A DNA stretch of 64,000 nucleotides from an uncultured Candidatus Melainabacteria bacterium. GTDB taxonomy: Bacteria; Cyanobacteriota; Vampirovibrionia; Gastranaerophilales; Gastranaerophilaceae. The stretch covers positions 1-64,000 of the forward strand of contig CANARY010000005.1 in NCBI GenBank assembly GCA_947364235.1, given 5' to 3'. This document shows, piece after piece, positions 9,145 through 30,940 of the stretch (positions are counted from its first letter, which is position 1; each line of letters begins with the position of its first letter). The position numbers and the translations under genes are program-made. The notes below the pieces were generated by a model. That model had not been told where the DNA came from. It saw only the letters and a program-made list of their open reading frames with translations, and ran no database searches.

Positions 9145-9196
9145 CTGCTTATATAATTTGATATTATGAACTTTTGTAACAATTTATCAAATTCGT

Positions 9197-9223
9197 TAAA
9201 GTTGTTAAAAAAAATGCCGTTAT
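9197..9223 (+). promoter_or_regulatory. Sigma-28 (FliA)-type promoter
   Basis: TAAAGTTG (9197-9204), exactly 11 bases, then GCCGTTAT (9216-9223) match the flagellar sigma-28 consensus TAAAGTTT-N11-GCCGATAA. The predicted start near 9230 leaves a short leader with AAAGGAG before the ATG at 9264. A TATAAT at 9223-9228 overlaps and might add sigma-70 activity. Confidence 0.72.
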
Positions 9224-9263: not shown

Positions 9264-12122
9264 ATGGGTCTTGGTATTAATTCATCAGATGCATTAGAAC
9301 AAGCTAAAGCAAGGCAGCAGGAAGCTTTAAAAGCAAAAGAAGCTGCGGAAAAAGCTAGAGCAGAAGCTGTACAAAAGGATTCTGAAGCAGCAGCTGCTGC
9401 TTCAAAAGAAGCAGCTGAAGCTGATGCTGCGGAAGCAAAAGCTGCAAAAGAAGCTGCTGATGTTACAGCGGCTCAAACAAAAATGAATTCTGCAAATGTT
9501 AGGGTTAATACAGCTCAATCAGCGTATTCAAATGCTTTAAATCAACTTTCACAAGCTCAAGCCGGCGGGGATGAAAATGCAATTGCAAGTGCCCAATCTG
9601 CTGTTGATAGAGCTTATGCAGAACTTCAAACAGCTCAGCGTGAAGCTGATGCGGCTAAAAAAGAATTAGATAAAGAAATTAAAGAATCAGAAGAAGCGCA
9701 AAAGAAAGCAGAAACAGAACGTAATGAAGCTATCCAAGCGCAAAATGATGTGGAAGCTGCGAAAGAAGTGCTGGCTAAAGCTGATGTTGATTTGACTAAT
9801 GCAATAACTGTATTAGAAGCTGCTGAAACAGCTCTTGCAGAAGCTGAAGCTGCAGCAGAAGAAAGTGCGCAAACAAAAGCAATTGATAATCCGGAAGGAG
9901 TTCAAGAAGCTGAGCATCTTTCAGAAGAAGAAATTTCTAACCTTGTTGCTAATGAAGGATATGTAAGTATCACTTCAAAAGAACAGTTCCTTGAAATATT
10001 TCAAAATGGCGGAATTGATTTAAACGGTAAATATATTCTAAGCTGCGACATGGATTTAAGTGATGTAGAAAATTGGAATCCTGTTGGTGATGATAAAAAT
10101 CCGTTTAAAGGTGTGTTTAACGGTAATGGTTATTCTATTAACAACCTTACTATCAATGTTACTGATGATAATGTCCAAAACGTTGGTTTCTTTGGGGTTA
10201 CAGAAAACGCTGTTATAACTAATGTAGACTTTTTTGATGCAAATATAATTACGCCGGATGACTTTATCGGAGGTTCTGCTGCTGTCGGTATTGCGGCTGG
10301 TACTGCAAGAGGTACAACATTTGATAATATAACATTGTCTGGTTCGGTTACAGGTTACGAAAGTGTTGGCGGTTTAGCAGGTATTATCAACGACAACTCT
10401 TATTTTGATAGTGATGGTAATCTGGTAGATATTGGCAATAGTTATGTTGCAAACATAGATACTTCAGTCAATGCCAATGGTAAATATTTTGTTGGCGGTT
10501 TGATTGGTTATGTCAAAGATACTTCAACGTTTGAAGGTGTTGCAACAAGAGATTTGAAGATTTCAAATTGTAATACAAGCGGAAACATTGTATTTACAGA
10601 AGAATCTGCAGGCGGCATGATTGGTGAAGCTGGTAAGACAATTATTACTATTAATAATTGTACAAGCTCTGCTAATATTACTTGGGATAATGATGAAAAT
10701 GACGGCGACATTTCATTCTTGATGGAAACAGGCAGAGCCGGCGGATTTATTGGATGCGTAAATGGTTCTTACATTGCTATCTGTAATTCAGAATACAAAG
10801 GTAATCTAGATGTAGAAGGCGATTTTAAGAGCGAATGGTACGGATGGTACATGAATGATGCTCAGGTAACTATTTATGAACTTTCTGGCGGCTTACCTAT
10901 TGATGATATTTTGAATATTGATGGTATAGATGCACTTACTCCTGTGACGGATCCAGCAGCAGGTATTGCCCATTATCAGGTAACGGTAAGTACACTTACC
11001 GGACTTGATAAAATGGTGTCAATGATTCAGGCAAATCCAGCCCTTGCTGATATGGTCACATTCAATGTTAACTTTGATTTTGAAGCAATGGATGGCATGT
11101 ATGACCCTTCTGTATATGAGCAGTATGGTGTTGTACAGCATTTGTATGAAGATGAAGACGGCAATGTTCATAATGATGTTTATATCGATAATGAAATAGA
11201 TTTAGAGACAACATTCCATAAAGGTGAAGGCGGAATGTGTAATGGGTCTATTTGTATTATGGATTATGTACCATTGGAAAGTACAATGGTAAAAGGGCTT
11301 TATAAAAATGAAGACGGTGAATACGTTGTAAATACCAATGAAGGCTTAAAAAATGTTGATATGAAGTTCAACAGCAGCGGTCAGATTACAAATGTTACAA
11401 AACGTTTGGAAACTGATGAAGTTAAATATCGTGAAAAGATTACTGCGATGGTTCAATTCTATCAGCAGCAAATGTATGCAGCTATTAGAGAAATGTATGC
11501 ATTAAGTGAAGAAGAATCTCTTCCAATGCTTAACAAAGCTGAATATAAAAAGCTTATTAAAATGCAAGAAGCCGGCATGGAATTAACAAACCAGCAGAAA
11601 GCAGCGATTGCAGCTTATGAAGTCGATTATAAAGTTATGAACATTGTATCTGATACAACTCATAACTATGGCTGCGGTATGGGCGGAAACGCATCTTTTC
11701 TTGATGAATCAAAAGCAATTCAAATGTTTGATACAGAAGGCAGACCTTTGTTTACTACATTAAATGGTGATCAGCTGCGTCAAAGAATGGATGCTGACGG
11801 CAGCTTGATGACAGATGAAGACGGTGTTCCTATTTATGAAAATCTCGATGGCAGCGACTATGAAGGTTTAGGAGAAGTATATGCTCAACGCGGATATCCT
11901 AAAACAGATGAAAATGGTAACTTCTTATATACTGATAAAGACGGAAAACCGGTAACAAAAATTAAGAATGAAGACGGAACAACTTCTTATAAAAATTCCG
12001 ACGGTTCTGACTATGCTGGAGAAGAAGATGATCTAAAACAACAGCTTGATCCGTATAATAATGCTGATGAATATAATGATTTAGAAGAACAAATGAAACA
12101 ATTACTCGGCAGTTTAACATAA
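9264..12122 (+). CDS. Large coiled-coil and GLUG-repeat protein, probably in the flagellar regulon
   Basis: This 952-residue protein has no signal peptide. Residues 5-215 are an Ala/Glu/Lys-rich coiled coil. Residues about 225-510 form a beta-helix-like region with GLUG-type repeats: VGGLAG near 368, FVGGLIG near 410, SAGGMIG near 450 and RAGGFIG near 492. The C-terminal third has acidic DG-rich repeats such as DADGSLMTDEDGVPIYENLDGSDY and a second NSDGSDY. GLUG repeats are known from bacterial surface and adhesin-like proteins. The sigma-28-type promoter and nearby flagellar export genes suggest a late flagellar or flagellum-exported substrate, but this is inference. A strong terminator follows. 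Confidence 0.75.
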   Translation: MGLGINSSDALEQAKARQQEALKAKEAAEKARAEAVQKDSEAAAAASKEAAEADAAEAKAAKEAADVTAAQTKMNSANVRVNTAQSAYSNALNQLSQAQAGGDENAIASAQSAVDRAYAELQTAQREADAAKKELDKEIKESEEAQKKAETERNEAIQAQNDVEAAKEVLAKADVDLTNAITVLEAAETALAEAEAAAEESAQTKAIDNPEGVQEAEHLSEEEISNLVANEGYVSITSKEQFLEIFQNGGIDLNGKYILSCDMDLSDVENWNPVGDDKNPFKGVFNGNGYSINNLTINVTDDNVQNVGFFGVTENAVITNVDFFDANIITPDDFIGGSAAVGIAAGTARGTTFDNITLSGSVTGYESVGGLAGIINDNSYFDSDGNLVDIGNSYVANIDTSVNANGKYFVGGLIGYVKDTSTFEGVATRDLKISNCNTSGNIVFTEESAGGMIGEAGKTIITINNCTSSANITWDNDENDGDISFLMETGRAGGFIGCVNGSYIAICNSEYKGNLDVEGDFKSEWYGWYMNDAQVTIYELSGGLPIDDILNIDGIDALTPVTDPAAGIAHYQVTVSTLTGLDKMVSMIQANPALADMVTFNVNFDFEAMDGMYDPSVYEQYGVVQHLYEDEDGNVHNDVYIDNEIDLETTFHKGEGGMCNGSICIMDYVPLESTMVKGLYKNEDGEYVVNTNEGLKNVDMKFNSSGQITNVTKRLETDEVKYREKITAMVQFYQQQMYAAIREMYALSEEESLPMLNKAEYKKLIKMQEAGMELTNQQKAAIAAYEVDYKVMNIVSDTTHNYGCGMGGNASFLDESKAIQMFDTEGRPLFTTLNGDQLRQRMDADGSLMTDEDGVPIYENLDGSDYEGLGEVYAQRGYPKTDENGNFLYTDKDGKPVTKIKNEDGTTSYKNSDGSDYAGEEDDLKQQLDPYNNADEYNDLEEQMKQLLGSLT

Positions 12123-12130
12123 TAGTTGAC

Positions 12131-12160
12131 AAAAAAGCTTCTTTAAAAGGAGCTTTTTTT
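12131..12160 (+). terminator. Intrinsic terminator after the GLUG protein gene
   Basis: AAAAAAGCT (12131-12139) pairs with AGCTTTTTT (12151-12159), extended inward by a few pairs with a 3-base loop and followed by T residues. It lies 9 bases after the stop codon. Confidence 0.85.
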
Positions 12161-12206
12161 GTGTAAATAAATGTAAAAAACTATACAAATACTTATGCAA
12201 ATGTTA

Positions 12207-12220: not shown

Positions 12221-12439
12221 ATGTATATCGTCAAAAACTTGAAGGACTATAATTTGTCCCACAAGCAGAGGATTTTTGCCGGCTACTTGAAGGATAATGT
12301 GGATTCGTTCACCTGTTATGAAAAGGTAACGAATCGTAGTGCAATGCGTAAATATTTTGCGCCGGACAATGATTTCATTACATACAGCACGGCTATTGCG
12401 GAGCCTGCAGAATTGCTTGCACGTGCACATGTTGGTTAA
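12221..12439 (+). CDS. Small protein of unknown function (72 residues)
   Basis: This short reading frame encodes a charged, soluble 72-residue protein (LSHKQRIFAGYLKD, then VTNRSAMRKYF). I do not recognise it. It is likely real because a TATAAT box sits just upstream, codon use looks like the neighbours, and its stop is one base before the ATG of an exported protein, suggesting coupling. The reading frame is also overlapped by a longer frame of the downstream gene, which complicates the choice. Confidence 0.5.
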   Translation: MYIVKNLKDYNLSHKQRIFAGYLKDNVDSFTCYEKVTNRSAMRKYFAPDNDFITYSTAIAEPAELLARAHVG

Positions 12440-12440
12440 A

Positions 12441-13019
12441 ATGAAAAGATTTTTAGTTTTATTATTAATATTTTTTGTTCTGCCTTCGGTATCAGCTGAA
12501 GAAATTTATCGTTTAGATTTTCAAGGAGAGCAGTATAATTTAATTTACAGCCAAAAAAGCAGTGAACATAACGGTTATTTTAATGGTTATTTCAAGCAGG
12601 GGGAAGACATCAATTCTTGGACGGATATGATAGCAGTTCATCATTTTCCAAATGTTTTTTCACCAATAGAGACTGCTCATAATTTTAAAGAGTACTTGGC
12701 GCAGCTTCGATGTCCGTGCGCTATTTCAGAAGATGAGGAAAATAACCGCAGTATGATTGACTGCTTGGTGATAGATTCTGAAGAGCTGCCTATTGTTCTT
12801 GAATTTAATGTGTTTAAATATGAAAAGCATCCTGAATGCGGTACAATAGCTTTTCAATATGTTAAGAAATATAGTGTGGATAATGTTTTACAAGTTGAAA
12901 AAGTAAAAAAAGATTTCGAAAAATATCGTCCAAGAATAATAAAACAGGTTTTAAAGTATGAAATGCCGGAACTTGTAAAAGTTGATATTGGTGAAATAAA
13001 ACTTAATGATTTGCCATGA
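12441..13019 (+). CDS. Exported protein of unknown function
   Basis: From the ATG at 12441 the protein is 192 residues with a clear signal peptide ending VSAEE near residue 20. The frame is open back to 12339, but the earlier start would bury the signal peptide and overlap the small gene. An ATG at 12429 is a close alternative. There is no good ribosome site, so translation is probably coupled to the small gene one base upstream. The mature part has three cysteines and no known motif. It lies just before fliP. Confidence 0.65.
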   Translation: MKRFLVLLLIFFVLPSVSAEEIYRLDFQGEQYNLIYSQKSSEHNGYFNGYFKQGEDINSWTDMIAVHHFPNVFSPIETAHNFKEYLAQLRCPCAISEDEENNRSMIDCLVIDSEELPIVLEFNVFKYEKHPECGTIAFQYVKKYSVDNVLQVEKVKKDFEKYRPRIIKQVLKYEMPELVKVDIGEIKLNDLP

Positions 13020-13076: not shown

Positions 13077-13835
13077 ATGAATTGGTTTAATATAAGACGG
13101 TTTGGGGTTGTTGCAGGGTTAATTCTTGCAGCGTTTTTGCCTGTAGAAGCAGCAATGTCGTTTCCAAATATTAATATAGGCATGCAAACAGCGAATACAC
13201 CTCAAGATTTTACGAACGGACTCCAAATTTTAATCTGGTTAACGATACTTACGCTTGCTCCAAGTATACTGATTATGACAACTTCTTTTGTAAGGCTTGT
13301 TGTAGTTTTATCTTTGACCAGGCAGGCGCTTGGAGCAGGAAATCTGCCTCCAAACCAGGTTATAACAAGCTTGGCTTTGATTTTAACTTTTTTTATAATG
13401 GCGCCAACATTTAATGAAATTAATGAAAACGCTCTACAGCCGTATATGAAAAATCAAATTACTCAGCAAGCGGCACTTGACAGGGGGATTGTTCCTGTAA
13501 GAAATTTTATGTTTAAACAGACGCACGAAAAAGAGCTTGCACTTTTTGTAAGAATGGCAAAGATAGAAAAGCCTAAGAATAAAGACGATGTGCCGACTTA
13601 TGTTTTGCTGCCGGCGTTTATACTTAGCGAGCTGAAAACTGCATTTACAATAGGGTTTGTAGTTTATCTTCCGTTTTTGGTTATTGATATTGTTGTATCT
13701 TCTGTACTGGTATCAATGGGTATGATGTTCTTACCTCCGACTATGATTGCTCTGCCGTTTAAGCTTATAATGTTTGTAATGGTAGACGGATGGTATTTGG
13801 TAGTTAAATCTTTGGTAGAAAGCTTTGTAAGGTAG
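13077..13835 (+). CDS. fliP: Flagellar type III export gate protein FliP
   Basis: This 252-residue protein has a cleavable signal-like N-terminus, as usual for FliP, and four membrane helices. Family signatures are visible: TSFVRLVVVLSLTRQALG, LPPNQVITSLALILTFF and the C-terminal MGMMFLPPTMIALPFKL. FliP forms the core export gate with FliQ and FliR in the inner membrane. fliQ follows 4 bases later. This begins the flagellar export run. Confidence 0.96.
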   Translation: MNWFNIRRFGVVAGLILAAFLPVEAAMSFPNINIGMQTANTPQDFTNGLQILIWLTILTLAPSILIMTTSFVRLVVVLSLTRQALGAGNLPPNQVITSLALILTFFIMAPTFNEINENALQPYMKNQITQQAALDRGIVPVRNFMFKQTHEKELALFVRMAKIEKPKNKDDVPTYVLLPAFILSELKTAFTIGFVVYLPFLVIDIVVSSVLVSMGMMFLPPTMIALPFKLIMFVMVDGWYLVVKSLVESFVR

Positions 13836-13839
13836 AGTT

Positions 13840-14115
13840 ATGAATCAAGATATAGTAATAACGCTTTTACAAAAAATGTTCATATTAACGCTGGAAATCT
13901 CTGTTCCTGTGCTTCTTGTCGGGGTTGTGCTGGGGCTTCTGGTAAGTATATTTCAGACTGTTACGCAAATTCAGGAATCTACATTAACGTTTGTGCCTAA
14001 GATTGTGGGCTGCGTCTTGCTTTTAATCTTTCTTATGCCATGGATGTTCAGTATTTTTATAACTACTGTAAATGAATTTATGAGTATGATACCTCAATTA
14101 ATCGGCGGGGCATAA
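13840..14115 (+). CDS. fliQ: Flagellar type III export gate protein FliQ
   Basis: This 91-residue protein has two membrane helices and the FliQ signature FQTVTQIQESTLTFVPKI. Length and gene order (fliP-fliQ-fliR) are canonical. It packs around FliP in the export gate. Its stop overlaps the fliR start by one base. Confidence 0.95.
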   Translation: MNQDIVITLLQKMFILTLEISVPVLLVGVVLGLLVSIFQTVTQIQESTLTFVPKIVGCVLLLIFLMPWMFSIFITTVNEFMSMIPQLIGGA

Positions 14116-14894
14116 TGTTCAATCTGGATGTTTTGTTTTCTACTGCTAATATAATTCTTTTTATGGCAATTTTTACAAGGCTTTCAGGACTTTTTGCTTC
14201 GGCGCCGCTTTTCTCAACATATCCTATTCCAATGCAGGTTAAGATATGGCTGGCAGCAGCAATTGCGTTTATTTTGTTTCCAATAGTGCAGTATAATACT
14301 GCATTTACGGTGCCAAGCTCAGTGCCAGCTCTTACTCTTATATTAATAAAAGAGTTTTTTATCGGATTTGCAATGGGATATTGTGCTAATATTCTATTTA
14401 TAGGAATAGAGCTTGGAGTAAATATGTTTGCTGTTCAGATGGGGCTTTCTGCTGATCAGGCTTTGAATCCTGCATCAGGAGGCCAGTCTCCCGTTATTAC
14501 GCAGGCATATACGTTTCTTGCTACTATGCTTTTTATTGCTCTTGGGGCTCATCAATGGCTTTTCTCTGCTATTTATAACAGTTTTAAAAGTATGCCTGTG
14601 GGATATACACTAACTTTTTCTCCTGAACTTTTCGGACATATTGTAACAGTTACAGCGCAAATATTTGGTATCGGGCTTGGAATTGCACTGCCTATTTTTG
14701 GCGTTTTGTTTATAACAGATATTTTATTAGGTTTTACTTCTAAAATGATGCCTCAAATGAATATTTTTATGGTTTCTCTGCCGCTTAAAATTTATTTAGG
14801 GCTTTTGCTTTCGTTGATTTTCATGCGTCCGATGGCTGAGTACATTGCTGTTTTAATAGGAAGATTTCTTGAACAAATTGCTTTTATGTTTTAA
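14115..14894 (+). CDS. fliR: Flagellar type III export gate protein FliR
   Basis: This 259-residue multipass protein has the FliR features FTRLSGLFASAPLFS, GYCANILFIGIELG and LGLLLSLIFMRPM. It completes the FliP5-Q4-R1 export gate. In many genomes flhB follows directly, but here a divergent DUF2142 gene lies between. fliR and that gene end tail to tail and overlap by 4 bases. Confidence 0.94.
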   Translation: MFNLDVLFSTANIILFMAIFTRLSGLFASAPLFSTYPIPMQVKIWLAAAIAFILFPIVQYNTAFTVPSSVPALTLILIKEFFIGFAMGYCANILFIGIELGVNMFAVQMGLSADQALNPASGGQSPVITQAYTFLATMLFIALGAHQWLFSAIYNSFKSMPVGYTLTFSPELFGHIVTVTAQIFGIGLGIALPIFGVLFITDILLGFTSKMMPQMNIFMVSLPLKIYLGLLLSLIFMRPMAEYIAVLIGRFLEQIAFMF

Positions 14895-16165
14895 ATCAGA
14901 AAGCTTGCATAGATAAGATTTAAAATAATAATGCTTAGAATAAAAAGCTTCAAATAATTTGTATGTATTTTAAAATAGTTCTGTATAACAGCTGCAAAGC
15001 TCAGATGAAGAGGGATGAAATATCTTCCCTGGGTTCCTATTATAATTCCGCTTTCTAGCGGAGAATAGGTTAAAAAATACAGTGCTGTTGTTAAGAGGAT
15101 AAAAATGCTGTTGAATATAACAATAAAAATTCTATCTGCAATTTTGACTCTTATGCTATCAATGAAAGATGAGATTAAATAAGAAAAATAAAGAAGTAAA
15201 ACAGAAATAGGATTTGGCTCGATTTCCAGCCAGCCAAGCCGGAACATGCTTGATTGAAGATAAAAACAAGTTTTATGCAAGAATGTATTTATGAATAATT
15301 TTAAAACGTATGCAGGATGAGTAAAGAAGAGTAGTTTTCTTGTTTCGACATCAATGTTATCGCCAATAAGCATGTAAGAATTTGAGCATAATATGTTTTG
15401 TAAAATTGCTCCAATTGAGAAGAGTGGTAAAAATACCAAAAATTTATTATTTATTTTTGATTTTGGGACGAGCAGAAATAGCAGTGAAAACAAAAATATG
15501 CCTTTAAACAAAACGCTAAACAGAGTCATTAGTATAAAAGGTTTAATGTTTTTGTTTTCTCCGTATGCCAGGCTAAAAATATACCCGATGTATATAAAAA
15601 CAAAACCTAAGTTTATACTGTCTGCTGAAAGAGACATTCCTTCGTAAACTGTTATAGGAAATAAAGCACAAATTAAAAACTGCCATTTAAATGGAGTAAT
15701 TTTAATTGCGAAAAATGTCAGCGCGAGCCATACAGCCAGATTAAAAAAACGTGCTGAGTAAAATTGGATATAAGGATTTGTTGTAATACAGGATGTAATT
15801 TTAAGTCCGATGGCTGATGGAAGGTACAATATAAAAGAATATCCGCTGTTGTTATGTGTATAATTTAGGTTTTTAAATTCTAATAAATCTGTGTAATGAT
15901 TTATATTTTTGAATTTTTGGAATTGAGCACAATTTTTTCTCAGCAAAAGTTTTCTATTTGGTAAAAGGTCTTTTGTAAAATCACCTGTTTTATCGTTATG
16001 TATAACTAGATTTGAAACTTCACACGCTCTTAATAAATGCATAGGCTCATCCGGAACCTGAAAAATAGGTGTGATAACCATAAATAGCAGCCCGAAAAAT
16101 ATTCCAAGGCAGAGAAAGATATGTTCAGGCTTAAGCTTAATTAAAAATTTTACGCATTTATTCAT
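14891..16165 (-). CDS. DUF2142 family multipass membrane protein
   Basis: This 424-residue protein has about ten membrane helices. Near the N-terminus, PIFQVPDEPMHLLRACEVS matches the DUF2142 family, whose members resemble GT-C-type membrane glycosyltransferases and often sit in polysaccharide loci. The C-terminal YSPLESGIIIGTQGRYFIPLHLS is also typical. It lies on the opposite strand between fliR and flhB and shares a 20-base start region with flhB. No Shine-Dalgarno is present and a TATACT box ends 6 bases before the ATG, so the mRNA may be leaderless. The substrate is unknown; glycosylation of surface or flagellar components is conceivable. Confidence 0.78.
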   Translation of the reverse strand: MNKCVKFLIKLKPEHIFLCLGIFFGLLFMVITPIFQVPDEPMHLLRACEVSNLVIHNDKTGDFTKDLLPNRKLLLRKNCAQFQKFKNINHYTDLLEFKNLNYTHNNSGYSFILYLPSAIGLKITSCITTNPYIQFYSARFFNLAVWLALTFFAIKITPFKWQFLICALFPITVYEGMSLSADSINLGFVFIYIGYIFSLAYGENKNIKPFILMTLFSVLFKGIFLFSLLFLLVPKSKINNKFLVFLPLFSIGAILQNILCSNSYMLIGDNIDVETRKLLFFTHPAYVLKLFINTFLHKTCFYLQSSMFRLGWLEIEPNPISVLLLYFSYLISSFIDSIRVKIADRIFIVIFNSIFILLTTALYFLTYSPLESGIIIGTQGRYFIPLHLSFAAVIQNYFKIHTNYLKLFILSIIILNLIYASFLI

Positions 16166-16185: not shown

Positions 16186-17268
16186 ATGGGAAATGAGGCA
16201 GCAGAAAAAACCGAAGAAGCGACCACCCGACGACGGACGAAAGAACGTGAACGCGGGAATGTGTCAAAGAGCAGGGATTTAGATTCTGCTCTGGTTATGG
16301 TTGCAAGTATTGCATTACTGGGTGTTCTCGGTTCCGGCATGATGAATACCATGCAAGGTATGATGAAAGAGACTTTCTCTAATCTAAGTTATGCAAACAT
16401 GGATGTAACAAATGTGATGGGCGTTCTGCTGCCTTATTTTAAATATCTTGGTATGATTGTTCTTCCATTTTTTGTTTTGCTCGCGATTTCAGCGGTATTT
16501 ATTATAAGGTTTGATGTAGGACATGTCTTTGCTCTGGAGAAAGCAAAGTTTAATCTTGAAAACATTTCTCCAAAGCGTATGCTTCAGAATGCAAAACGAA
16601 TTTTTAATCCATTTGAACCGCGCTCTCTTGTTGAGTTTGCAAAATCAATTCTGAAAATTGTTGTTGTAGGTGCTTGCGGTTATTCAGCAATAAACAGCAG
16701 AAAAGGCGATTTACTCGGGCTTGTCGGACTTGATATTCCTATTGCGATAAATATTATTTTGTCGATTCTAATAAATATGATTATAAACATGTGCCTTGCT
16801 ATGCTTATTCTTGGATATCTGGATAAAAAATATCAGAATTATGAGTATGAAAAATCTATTAAGATGACAAAGCAAGAAGTTAAAGACGAACATAAAGATA
16901 CAGAAGGTGATCCTAAGATTAAAGCTAAGATAAAATCTATTCAGATGCAGATGGCACGCCAGCGTATGATGTCTTCTGTACCTGATGCTGATGTTGTTGT
17001 AACAAACCCGACGCATTATGCTGTTGCAATTAAATATGACAAGACTAAAGCTCCAGCTCCGATGGTTGTGGCAAAAGGAGTGGATTATCTTGCATTCCAA
17101 ATAAGAGAAATAGCAAAAGAAAACAATGTTCCTATTGTAGAAAATAGACCGGTAGCACGTTCGCTTTATAATACTGTGCCTATAGAGGGAATAATACCTT
17201 CAGATATGTATGTAGCAGTGGCTGAAATCCTTGCTTATGTCTTTAAACAGAAAAATGGTTTAGATTAA
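16186..17268 (+). CDS. flhB: Flagellar export switch protein FlhB
   Basis: This 360-residue protein has four membrane helices and a cytoplasmic domain with the autocleavage motif NPTH at residues 274-277, then YAVAIKYD. FlhB switches export from rod/hook to filament substrates. The N-terminus (EKTEEATTRRRTKERERGNVSKSRDL) is the usual charged FlhB start. No Shine-Dalgarno precedes the ATG; a TATAAT ends 6 bases upstream. It is separated from fliR by the divergent DUF2142 gene and followed after about 100 bases by flhA. Confidence 0.96.
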   Translation: MGNEAAEKTEEATTRRRTKERERGNVSKSRDLDSALVMVASIALLGVLGSGMMNTMQGMMKETFSNLSYANMDVTNVMGVLLPYFKYLGMIVLPFFVLLAISAVFIIRFDVGHVFALEKAKFNLENISPKRMLQNAKRIFNPFEPRSLVEFAKSILKIVVVGACGYSAINSRKGDLLGLVGLDIPIAINIILSILINMIINMCLAMLILGYLDKKYQNYEYEKSIKMTKQEVKDEHKDTEGDPKIKAKIKSIQMQMARQRMMSSVPDADVVVTNPTHYAVAIKYDKTKAPAPMVVAKGVDYLAFQIREIAKENNVPIVENRPVARSLYNTVPIEGIIPSDMYVAVAEILAYVFKQKNGLD

Positions 17269-17300
17269 ACTGCTGCGGGATAGTTCTCTTTCTTATTTAC

Positions 17301-17371
17301 TCTCCTCCCTTAATAAATCTTAAATTTATTGCTTGTTATTGCTGCTGATGATAGAATATTATTGGAGGAGA
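17301..17371 (+). promoter_or_regulatory. Possible Shine-Dalgarno-sequestering hairpin in the flhA leader
   Basis: TCTCCTCC at 17301-17308 is a perfect complement of GGAGGAGA at 17364-17371, which is the flhA ribosome-binding site. Between them AATAAAT (312-318) and ATTTATT (324-330) form an inner hairpin. If folded, the flhA ribosome site would be masked. Confidence 0.4.
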
Positions 17372-19492
17372 ATGCCTTATTATCAGGCTGGAGAAAAAGT
17401 GGAATTCGGTAAATTATCAAAAGTATTAGGCAATAATGATATCGTCCTTGCTATAGGCTTGGTCGTGATTGTCTGCATGATGGTAATTCCTCTGCCGGCT
17501 CCTATGCTGGATTTGCTTTTAACTGTTAATATTTCGTTAGCAGTTGTTATTCTTCTTGTCTGCCTTTATACACAAGAGCCGCTTGATTATTCATCATTTC
17601 CTACGGTTTTGCTTATAGCAACACTTTTTAGGCTTGGCTTAAATGTAAGCTCTACGCGTTTGATTCTTTTAAATGGTGAAGCAGGTAACGTAATTACTTC
17701 GTTCGGAGAATTTGTTGTCGGCGGAAACTATGTTGTCGGTGCTGTTATATTTTGTATTCTGGTTTTGATTAACTTTATGGTTATTACAGGCGGTGCAACG
17801 CGTGTTGCTGAAGTTTCTGCAAGGTTTACATTAGATAAAATGCCAGGTAAACAATTGAGTATTGATGCAGATTTAAACTCGGGGTTGATTAATGAAGAAC
17901 AAGCGAAAGAAAGACGCCGTAAGCTGGAAAGAGAAACAGATTTCTACGGTACAATGGATGGTGCTTCTAAGTTTGTTAAAGGTGATGCAACAGCAGGTAT
18001 TGTTATCACTGTTATAAATATTGTCGGCGGTTTGATTATCGGAGTTATTCAGCTTCACATGAATGTGCAGACCGCGCTTTCTACTTATACAATTTTAACT
18101 GTAGGCGACGGCCTTGTATCACAGGTTCCGGCTCTTTTAATATCAACCGCAACAGGTTTGATTGTATCGAGAGCGACGGGTAAGGACGAATCTTTATCTT
18201 CTGATATCAAAAATGAAATGTTTTCTGATCCTCGTGTATTAGGGGTTGTAGCCGGGCTTCTCGGTTTTATGGGTATTGTTCCCGGCATGCCTACTCTTCC
18301 ATTCTTGACAATAGCAATGGTTGCAGGAGGAATGGCTTATTTTAGGTCAAAAGCTAAAAAGGAAATTATCCAAACTCAAGAAGCTCAGATTGCAGAACAA
18401 GCTCAGCAAGAAAAGCTCGGCAAAAAAGAAAAACGCGCTAAAGCAACGAGAGAAAGTGTTATGGAGCTGCTTAATGTTGATACAATCGAAATAGAAGTAG
18501 GCTACAGGCTTGTTCAGCTTTTGAATGTTGAAATGGGTGGTGATTTGCTGGAACGTATTGCACAAATTAGACGCCAAACAGCTCTGGATTTAGGCATTGT
18601 ATTGCCTTCAATAAGGGTAAGAGATAATTTACAACTTTCTCCTAATTCATATCAGATAAAGCTTAAGGGGGTTGCGTTAGAATCTGGTGAAGTTTATCCT
18701 GAAAGGTTTCTTGCTATGTGTGCAGGTGATCCTGTAGGAAATCTGGCTATTAATGGTATTCATGCAATAGAACCTGCTTTTGGTCTGCCTGCTTTATGGA
18801 TTGAAGCGAAAGACAAAGACATGGCTGAAATGTCAGGATACACTGTTGTTTCTGCTTCAGCTGTTATTTCTACGCATATTACTGAAGTTATTAAAAAGTG
18901 TGCTTCTGAAATTATTTCAAGGTTTGATGTACAGCAGCTTCTTGATAATCTAAAAAAAGAGGTTTCAGAAGATTATGTCGCTGATATGATGCGCGATATT
19001 ACAGTAGGTGACGTTCAAATAGTTATGCAAAATCTGCTGAAAGAAGGAGTTGCTGTCAGGGATTTAAAAACAATTCTTGAGACAATTAGTCTGCAGGCTA
19101 AGATTAATAAAAGTCCAAGTTTTCTGACTGAGCATGTAAGGCAGGCGCTTTCCAGAAATATATGCAAGCAAAATCTTGCAGATACAGGAGAATTGTATGT
19201 AATTACACTTGCTCCTGATGTTGAAAATACGATTGCCAGAGGTGCAAGTCCTGATGGTCAGAGTGTAACGCTTGATCCAAGTTTTACTAAAAATATGTTT
19301 GATAAGATGAATTTAGAGTTAGAGAAAGCTATTACAGCAACTGGCAACCAGCCTGTGATACTTTGTTCTTCTCCAATCAGGCTTTTGTTTAGAAAGCTTG
19401 TTGAAAGAACATATCCGCAAATTGCGATTATGTCATATAATGAAATAAGCCCGAATGTTAAAGTAAAATCTGTTGGTATTGTCAGGGCATGA
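17372..19492 (+). CDS. flhA: Flagellar export gate protein FlhA
   Basis: From the ATG at 17372 the protein is 706 residues. The strong GGAGGAG site just before it favours this start over an in-frame ATG at 17333. The N-terminal half has eight membrane helices and the FHIPEP-type signature (LDYSSFPTVLLIATLFRLGLN, then KMPGKQLSIDADLNSG). The C-terminal half is the cytosolic ring domain that docks chaperone-substrate complexes. FlhA couples proton flow to export. Downstream are a PilZ protein and a small membrane protein. Confidence 0.96.
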   Translation: MPYYQAGEKVEFGKLSKVLGNNDIVLAIGLVVIVCMMVIPLPAPMLDLLLTVNISLAVVILLVCLYTQEPLDYSSFPTVLLIATLFRLGLNVSSTRLILLNGEAGNVITSFGEFVVGGNYVVGAVIFCILVLINFMVITGGATRVAEVSARFTLDKMPGKQLSIDADLNSGLINEEQAKERRRKLERETDFYGTMDGASKFVKGDATAGIVITVINIVGGLIIGVIQLHMNVQTALSTYTILTVGDGLVSQVPALLISTATGLIVSRATGKDESLSSDIKNEMFSDPRVLGVVAGLLGFMGIVPGMPTLPFLTIAMVAGGMAYFRSKAKKEIIQTQEAQIAEQAQQEKLGKKEKRAKATRESVMELLNVDTIEIEVGYRLVQLLNVEMGGDLLERIAQIRRQTALDLGIVLPSIRVRDNLQLSPNSYQIKLKGVALESGEVYPERFLAMCAGDPVGNLAINGIHAIEPAFGLPALWIEAKDKDMAEMSGYTVVSASAVISTHITEVIKKCASEIISRFDVQQLLDNLKKEVSEDYVADMMRDITVGDVQIVMQNLLKEGVAVRDLKTILETISLQAKINKSPSFLTEHVRQALSRNICKQNLADTGELYVITLAPDVENTIARGASPDGQSVTLDPSFTKNMFDKMNLELEKAITATGNQPVILCSSPIRLLFRKLVERTYPQIAIMSYNEISPNVKVKSVGIVRA

Positions 19493-30284: not shown

Positions 30285-30313
30285 ATAATACAGCTTTTGT
30301 AAAGCTTTGTAAA
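30285..30313 (-). promoter_or_regulatory. Strong rnpA promoter, leaderless
   Basis: On the minus strand TTTACA (30313-30308), a 17-base spacer and TATTAT (30290-30285) lie exactly 6 bases before the rnpA start codon. It is divergent from the sigma-28-type promoter at 30331. Confidence 0.7.
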
Positions 30314-30330
30314 GTTTTTGTTAAAAAGAT

Positions 30331-30357
30331 TAAAGTTTTAGAAAAAAATGCCGTAAT
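30331..30357 (+). promoter_or_regulatory. Sigma-28 (FliA)-type promoter
   Basis: TAAAGTTT (30331-30338), exactly 11 bases, then GCCGTAAT (30350-30357). The -35 is a perfect consensus and the -10 retains GCCG. The start point near 30364 leaves a short leader with AAGGAG before the ATG at 30380. Confidence 0.75.
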
Positions 30358-30379: not shown

Positions 30380-30940
30380 ATGTCAGATGATTTTAAAGTA
30401 GAAAAAAGTTCGGTTAATACAGGAGGACAAGCGCAAAATAGCGGTGAAAGGAAAGTTATAGATGAATCTGCATATAGAATTCGTGCTCCGAGAGAAAAAG
30501 GCCCTACTGCTGTAGGACGTGGCGGAGATCCATTTTTTAGGCGTATAAATGCAACTAATGATCAGCTTAAAGAGCTAATGGATGAAACTTCTACTATACA
30601 AGACTGGGTGCAGCGTGAAACTTCTAATAATGTTGCATTGGCTTGTCTTGAAAATGAAAATTTAAAAGAAATATATTTTGCAATAAAAGATGGTTTTGTA
30701 TCTGCTGACAAAACGTACGGGAAAATTTCTCTTATGGGGTTTAAAACACCTTCTGGAGTTGAAATACCAAGATTGAAAATTTTTGATGAAAATGGAGAAG
30801 TGCTTCAAGTTCTCACAGGACCTTTAGCAATTGATGAGCTGAATAAAAGAGCTCTTGCGTATAATGAAATATCAAATAATTATGAAGCAGTACCGGATGA
30901 AGCTCAGGATACTTCGGTTATTAATGATTACATTACATAG
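30380..30940 (+). CDS. Unknown protein under a sigma-28-type promoter, candidate motility protein
   Basis: This 186-residue soluble protein has a disordered N-terminus (about 1-50, rich in Gly, Ser, Gln and Arg). A short helix follows (NDQLKELMDETSTIQDWVQRE), and then a small domain around IKDGFVSADKTYGKISLMGF. I do not recognise it. There is no signal peptide. The promoter is an almost perfect flagellar one, so it is probably a late flagellar or chemotaxis-class protein. The 3' end overlaps the convergent ATPase gene by 8 bases. Confidence 0.68.
   Translation: MSDDFKVEKSSVNTGGQAQNSGERKVIDESAYRIRAPREKGPTAVGRGGDPFFRRINATNDQLKELMDETSTIQDWVQRETSNNVALACLENENLKEIYFAIKDGFVSADKTYGKISLMGFKTPSGVEIPRLKIFDENGEVLQVLTGPLAIDELNKRALAYNEISNNYEAVPDEAQDTSVINDYIT

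What the first reader, a model, noticed from the sequence alone, without database searches (positions are those of the whole stretch)
9264..12122. GLUG-repeat coiled-coil protein without signal peptide, placed in the flagellar regulon
The protein joins a 210-residue Ala/Glu/Lys coiled coil, four GLUG-type repeats and DG-rich C-terminal repeats, an arrangement typical of surface proteins, yet has no Sec signal. With its sigma-28-type promoter and the fliPQR-flhBA genes nearby, it could be exported through the flagellar type III machine as a filament-associated or adhesive appendage. That is a testable, apparently undescribed idea.
Basis: partly seen in the sequence, partly recalled or inferred. 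Interest (0 to 1): 0.65.

Follow-up and report, generated by a model that had tools for sequence, protein, structure and literature searches.

The report
Signal-less surface-type protein in secretion regulon
A gut bacterium related to cyanobacteria makes a protein that looks built for the cell surface but lacks the usual export tag; its promoter belongs to a set of similar genes that close relatives keep even after losing their flagella, where a second flagellum-like export machine remains, so the protein may leave the cell through one of these machines.

Summary
ORF 9264-12122 (952 aa) has a coiled-coil helical hairpin (aa 7-200), a GLUG-type beta region and DG-rich C-terminal repeats. It has no Sec signal, and a FliA/sigma-28 promoter (TAAAG-N14-GCCGTTAT, 9197-9223). 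Eighteen family members in the genus, this one included, all keep that promoter with a 15-nt spacer. The GLUG region is homologous to the variable domains of five flagellins of the same genome.

Only 6 of 18 members lie beside fliP, so the neighbourhood is not the evidence. The promoter is composite: TTGTAA[CA] sits 23-24 nt upstream of the sigma-28 box at nearly all of 25 sites. These sites precede about 20 proteins, nearly all without Sec signals; no flagellin or flagellar operon that I read has one. The sigma-28 regulon and FliA persist in relatives without flagellin. Those relatives also keep a second, flagellar-type, rod-bearing export apparatus (FliP2 about 144/146 genomes; FlhA 146/146; window-type FliP1 in 51/54 flagellin-positive and 0/92 flagellin-negative genomes).

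Best reading: a Sec-independent substrate of a flagellar-type type III gate, either this second apparatus or the flagellar one, acting at the surface. Secretion and function are inferred.

The parts
9174..9180 (+). TTGTAAC element 23 nt upstream of the -35 box (putative activator half-site; many regulon promoters carry a second copy about 10 bp further up)
   Evidence: 23/25 sigma-28 sites of this genome have TTGT[AT]A[CA] within 45 nt upstream, nearly all at -24/-23, against 4% of window 45-mers; conserved in the orthologues
9197..9223 (+). FliA/sigma-28-type promoter, -35 TAAAG (9197-9201), -10 GCCGTTAT (9216-9223), 15-nt spacer after TAAA
9253..9257 (+). Shine-Dalgarno AGGAG
   Evidence: sequence
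9264..12122 (+). 952-aa coiled-coil / GLUG-type / DG-repeat protein without Sec signal
9282..9863 (+). aa 7-200, antiparallel coiled-coil hairpin (helices 7-101 and 104-200)
   Evidence: AlphaFold2 pLDDT 80-92; heptad period
9912..10769 (+). aa 217-502, GLUG-type beta region homologous to the variable domain of five flagellins of the same genome
   Evidence: fold itself not resolved (pLDDT 45)
10770..11423 (+). aa 503-720, the most conserved part among 18 orthologues (52-81% id), no known domain
   Evidence: Pfam none
11517..12098 (+). aa 752-945, helical plus DG-rich repeat module shared with the 886-aa coiled-coil regulon protein L038
   Evidence: (E=8.5e-10)
12131..12161 (+). terminator-like inverted repeat with T run
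   Evidence: sequence by eye
30307..30357 (+). second composite promoter in the window (TTGTAAA, then TAAAG-N14-GCCGTAAT)
30380..30940 (+). 186-aa Sec-less regulon protein, no Pfam match
13077..14894 (+). flagellar fliP1-fliQ1-fliR1 (export gate that tracks flagellin across the order)
16186..19492 (+). flhB1 and flhA1

Best explanation
The gene encodes a surface-type protein that leaves the cell without the Sec pathway, as one member of a sigma-28 (FliA)-controlled set of putative type-III-exported proteins. Shown here: a conserved composite promoter (FliA box plus an upstream TTGTAA[CA] repeat), no Sec signal, and a GLUG region shared with flagellin outer domains. Also shown: a genome-wide regulon of about 20 mostly Sec-less proteins with the same promoter, and persistence of the sigma-28 regulon and FliA in relatives without flagellin that keep a second flagellar-type, rod-bearing export apparatus. 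Inferred: the S/T/N/G-rich N-terminus directs the unfolded chain to a flagellar-type gate. This would be the second system (FliMN-O-P2-Q2-R2 with FliE-F-H-FlhA2) or, second choice, the adjacent flagellar FliPQR-FlhBA. Outside, the coil hairpin would act as a stalk or packing domain and the GLUG beta region as a binding surface on the bacterium or its appendage.
For: Promoter: (18/18 orthologues; 23/25 sites with the upstream element; 0 composite sites in shuffled windows). Regulon content: (19 of 20 without a hydrophobic N-terminus against 145 of 199 background ORFs, Fisher p=0.03; first 12 residues richer in S/T/N/G/Q, p=5e-5). Shared domain with flagellins. Second export apparatus across the order. 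Regulon without flagellin. Family and synteny. Coil hairpin. Precedent for sigma-28-dependent non-flagellar proteins secreted by a flagellar T3SS: C. jejuni Feds (PMC5223770).
Against: No secretion data. An N-terminal type III signal cannot be proven from sequence. GLUG is not recognised by Pfam in this protein and its fold was not resolved. The Sec-less excess is modest (p=0.03) and background ORFs were called mechanically. The family itself is confined to one flagellated genus, so presence/absence cannot separate the two gates. One regulon gene (L032) does carry a Sec signal.
Confidence: 0.55

Rival explanations
1. One reading: the protein is exported by the flagellar gate (FliPQR1-FlhBA1) and decorates the flagellar filament as an adhesive accessory.
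For: GLUG region homologous to five flagellin outer domains; six members lie next to fliP; the family occurs only in a flagellated genus; orthologue N-termini such as MSLSINTSDAL resemble flagellin MTLTINTNISSL.
Against: 12 of 18 members are not near flagellar genes. No flagellin or flagellar operon read here has the composite promoter. The regulon persists without flagellin. The N-terminal likeness is not conserved in half the family.
Confidence: 0.25
2. A cytoplasmic or membrane-associated structural coiled-coil protein made under sigma-28 control (scaffold, polar or motility accessory) that is never exported.
For: No signal peptide or TM segment; coiled coils are common in cytoplasmic scaffolds; eight Cys residues.
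Against: GLUG-type regions and flagellin outer-domain homology point outside the cell. The regulon includes LysM and lytic transglycosylase-like proteins, also Sec-less, whose substrate (peptidoglycan) lies outside the cytoplasm.
Confidence: 0.18
3. A chance sigma-28-like site upstream of an ordinary orphan gene; no link to export.
For: AT-rich genome; a loose pattern search also gives hits in the reversed control (50 against 27).
Against: 18/18 orthologues keep the box and spacer. The upstream element occurs at a fixed distance at nearly all of 25 sites. No composite sites in shuffled windows.
Confidence: 0.02

Closest known systems
Campylobacter jejuni Fed, Cia and FspA proteins (sigma-28-dependent or flagellum-secreted non-flagellar proteins; PMC5223770, PMC2764114)
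   Same: Non-flagellar proteins reported to use a flagellar-type type III route; for the Feds, sigma-28 dependence
   Different: No sequence relation was tested or seen; here the sigma-28 regulon and a flagellar-type gate survive in species without flagellin, and the promoter has an additional upstream element
GLUG-bearing flagellins of the same genome (L002-L006)
   Same: Homologous GLUG-type region (35-40% id)
   Different: The window protein lacks Flagellin_N and Flagellin_C and carries a 200-residue coil hairpin and DG repeats instead
GLUG/M26 IgA-protease-type and other Sec-dependent surface adhesins (Pfam PF07581/PF05342)
   Same: GLUG-type beta repeats; two flagellin relatives also hit Peptidase_M26_N
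   Different: No signal peptide, no recognised anchor, no peptidase domain
'Incomplete flagellar gene sets' of non-motile gut Melainabacteria (Soo 2014, PMC4040986; PMC4914512 lists 12-15 flagellar genes)
   Same: Very probably the same genes as the second export apparatus described here
   Different: [quoted passage not shown] the order-wide distribution and coupled regulon argue for a retained function

Membership tests
Glug repeat proteins (PF07581) | Match to the Pfam Glug model | tested here: not met
   no hit for five family members
Glug repeat proteins (PF07581) | Homology to proteins that carry Glug | tested here: met
Flagellin | Flagellin_N and Flagellin_C domains | tested here: not met
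   none
FliA (sigma-28) regulon | TAAA-N15-GCCGATAA-type promoter at promoter distance from the start, conserved in orthologues, with fliA in the genome | tested here: met
FliA (sigma-28) regulon | FliA-dependent transcription | not testable with these tools
   needs RNA data
Proteins secreted by a flagellar-type T3SS (Fed/Cia-like) | No Sec signal | tested here: met
   and alignments
Proteins secreted by a flagellar-type T3SS (Fed/Cia-like) | N-terminal type III export signal | tested here: inconclusive
   regulon N-termini are S/T/N/G/Q-rich as a group (p=5e-5), which is only compositional
Proteins secreted by a flagellar-type T3SS (Fed/Cia-like) | Secretion lost in export mutants | not testable with these tools
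   no mutants or secretome
Non-flagellar T3SS (injectisome), for the second apparatus | Core components closer to Sct than to flagellar proteins | tested here: not met
   FliP2, FliF and FlhA2 are all closest to flagellar structures; FliE and rod proteins present
Non-flagellar T3SS (injectisome), for the second apparatus | Outer-membrane secretin | not tested
   not searched genome-wide
Flagellum, for the second apparatus | Basal body, rod and export gate together with hook and filament | tested here: inconclusive
   export gate, FliE, FliF, FliH and rod found in flagellin-less G018; no flagellin in those genomes; hook and ATPase not searched

The most novel reading that the evidence does not exclude
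Gastranaerophilales carry, throughout the order, a second flagellar-type basal body with a rod but no flagellin, which works as a dedicated secretion machine. Its substrates, including this GLUG coiled-coil protein and the many-copy MGMAASQ family, form a FliA-plus-activator regulon. Sigma-28 in this order would mainly serve protein secretion rather than swimming, and the 'incomplete flagellar genes' of non-motile members would be a functional type III secretion system.
Probability: 0.4. Interest if true: 0.85.

Novelty: new variant of a known kind. Interest (0 to 1): 0.66.

Why it matters
Gut Gastranaerophilales have small genomes, gut types are reported to lack a type I secretion system (PMC3787301), and how they act on their surroundings is unknown. 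A flagellar-type secretion system retained across the whole order, with a promoter signature that lists its likely cargo, would explain why non-motile members keep flagellar genes. It would also give a ready list of candidate host- or microbe-contact proteins. The GLUG coiled-coil protein is a concrete test case: one antibody or one reporter fusion would decide between export and cytoplasm.

Tried and rejected
Rejected: chance promoter (18/18 conservation). Rejected: the gene as a flagellin or hook-family member (no Pfam flagellin domains). Rejected: neighbourhood to fliPQR-flhBA as evidence (12/18 members lie elsewhere).

Led nowhere: AlphaFold2 with a five-sequence alignment resolved only the coil. 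A GLUG-domain-only model had pLDDT 45, so no fold search was made. The PDB sequence search gave only weak coiled-coil matches (best: a SipB coil, E=0.034), not used as evidence. NCBIfam gave nothing for the protein. The C-half of the protein has no homologue in the 138 sampled genomes outside the genus, so a correlation with flagella at order level could not be made for this family alone. A likeness of orthologue N-termini to flagellin N-termini was noted but dropped as evidence for the best explanation, because half the family does not share it.

Full report
THE OBSERVATION. The ORF at 9264-12122 (+) encodes 952 aa from an ATG behind AGGAG. AlphaFold2 gives a confident helical hairpin, residues 7-101 and 104-200 with a turn at GGD (pLDDT 80-92), and both arms have a 3.5-residue hydrophobic period. 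No hydrophobic N-terminal stretch or TM segment exists. Pfam finds nothing, Glug included, even at E=10. The region 217-502 is nevertheless homologous to the central domains of five proteins of the same genome (E 1e-12 to 3e-16; pairwise 1e-22), and all five are flagellins with Flagellin_N, Flagellin_C and 2-7 Glug matches. These five were the only GLUG-region relatives found in the genome. The C-terminal module (752-945) is shared with one other protein, L038, an 886-aa coiled-coil protein.

THE PROMOTER. TAAAGTTGTTAAAAAAAATGCCGTTAT lies at 9197-9223, 40 nt before the ATG. In the genome, 17 exact matches to TAAAG-N14-GCCGWTAW exist, and a variant pattern gives 26 sites against 8 for the reversed control. 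Eighteen family members in the genus, of 58 genomes searched (two of them appear identical), all keep the box with a 15-nt spacer: -35 box 2.0 bits/position, -10 box 1.7, flanks 0.7-1.0. A second element emerged: TTGT[AT]A[CA] lies within 45 nt upstream at 23 of 25 sites, nearly always 23-24 nt before TAAAG, and is often repeated about 10 bp further up, against 4% of window 45-mers and 8% of AT-rich ones. The full composite pattern occurs twice in the window (9174 and 30307) and never in 20 shuffles. The spacing resembles direct-repeat sites of OmpR/PhoB-type regulators; this is inference.

THE REGULON. Genes starting about 20-65 nt after such sites encode MGMAASQ-type proteins, EF-hand proteins, a LysM protein, a lytic transglycosylase-like protein without signal peptide (by eye), coiled-coil proteins and small unknowns. 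About 19 of 20 have no hydrophobic N-terminus, against 145 of 199 background ORFs (p=0.03), and their first residues are rich in S/T/N/G/Q (p=5e-5). Background ORFs were called mechanically, so these p-values are rough. None of the genes identified is a classical flagellar gene. One flagellin (L112:5018) has a sigma-28-like box without the upstream element; no other flagellin or flagellar operon that I read has the composite site.

THE SECOND EXPORT APPARATUS. In 146 genomes of the order, flagellin was found in 54. The window-type FliP1 (E<1e-70) is in 51 of those 54 and in none of the 92 without flagellin; a second FliP (42-46% id) is in about 144 (my count from its table). FlhA is in all 146, with FlhA1-class hits (E<1e-240) essentially restricted to flagellin-positive genomes and FlhA2-class hits (about 1e-215) in nearly all. 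Near FliP2 lie a FliMN_C protein, FliO, FliQ2 and FliR2. In the five-contig, flagellin-less G018, FlhA2 follows FliE, FliF and FliH, and FlgB, FlgC and two FlgF/G-like rod genes are present. FliP2, FlhA2 and FliF are closer to flagellar than to injectisome structures. The window's organism has both FliP loci.

REGULON WITHOUT FLAGELLA. FliA is over its cut-off in 142 of 146 genomes. The MGMAASQ family (conserved N and C ends, variable middle) is in 145 of 146, usually with several matches per genome. In flagellin-less genomes, 11 of the 16 start regions that my script located carry a sigma-28-like box by its pattern, with a few more near-matches by eye. Of 16 boxes found by a looser pattern, 10 have the upstream element, three of them with two perfect copies. 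Other sites there precede LysM-like and GAF-type genes. Sigma-28 control of such proteins therefore does not depend on flagella.

SYNTENY AND RANGE. Only 6 of 18 members sit beside fliP (window, L067, L068, L069, L085, L204); the others are elsewhere. The C-half has no homologue in the 138 sampled genomes outside the genus. The named matches are mostly MAGs of Candidatus Gastranaerophilales.

MECHANISM. I favour Sec-independent export by a flagellar-type gate followed by a surface role: coil hairpin as stalk, GLUG region as binding surface. The promoter class favours the second apparatus; the flagellin-shared domain keeps the flagellar gate open. Secretion, gate choice and adhesion are inferred. 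The precedent is the C. jejuni Fed proteins, sigma-28-dependent in production and secretion (PMC5223770). Earlier papers recorded the flagellar genes of non-motile members as incomplete sets (PMC4040986; PMC4914512). My searches of the held library found no paper describing a second flagellar-type secretion system in this order; this is not proof of absence.

Noticed in passing
L048:12204-16124 (G000:C1), L143, L205 and FliP2 loci L087-L094: Second flagellar-type export apparatus (FliMN_C, FliO, FliP2, FliQ2, FliR2; FliE, FliF, FliH, FlhA2; rod genes) in nearly all Gastranaerophilales, including genomes without flagellin.
   Followed up: partly
L050:469-1908, L051:3999-5186, L206:8831-9970 and many others: MGMAASQ protein family: conserved N and C ends with variable middle, several matches per genome in 145/146 genomes, no Pfam match, often behind a sigma-28-type promoter.
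   Followed up: partly
L039:9445 and L041:5706 (G000:C5, C2): G11 tracts inside short leader ORFs (..NRxNPCxDM..RGGG) just upstream of two GLUG flagellin genes; only three G/C runs of 8 or more were seen in 256 kb, so these look like phase-variable leaders.
   Followed up: partly
L135 (G043:C3:91519-91919): C10 tract inside the spacer of a sigma-28-type promoter of an MGMAASQ gene in a flagellin-less genome; possible phase-variable promoter.
   Followed up: no
L048:5029-12297 (-): 2,422-codon ORF (gene probably starting at MSGEQFF) behind a composite sigma-28 promoter, divergent from the second-apparatus operon.
   Followed up: no
L147:4084-4698 (-) and L118: Small operon with 89-108-aa proteins and 107-110-aa MGLIASS/MGVLVAS proteins behind a sigma-28 site, present in flagellated and flagellin-less genomes; size fits a needle- or rod-like subunit.
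   Followed up: no
search of PF00771 across the order: Additional weaker FlhA-family match (E about 1e-48 in the two genomes where it is the best hit) in most genomes besides FlhA1/FlhA2.
   Followed up: no
window 12339-13019: Conserved unknown protein with a Sec-like signal directly upstream of fliP in many genus genomes (motif NGY.N.YFK.GE...W); no Pfam or NCBIfam match.
   Followed up: no
window 14891-16165 (-): DUF2142 membrane protein gene inserted on the opposite strand between fliR and flhB.
   Followed up: no
L004 (G000:C7 start) and L006 (G000:C12 start): Two GLUG flagellin genes are cut at contig ends, suggesting assembly breaks at repeated flagellin sequence.
   Followed up: no
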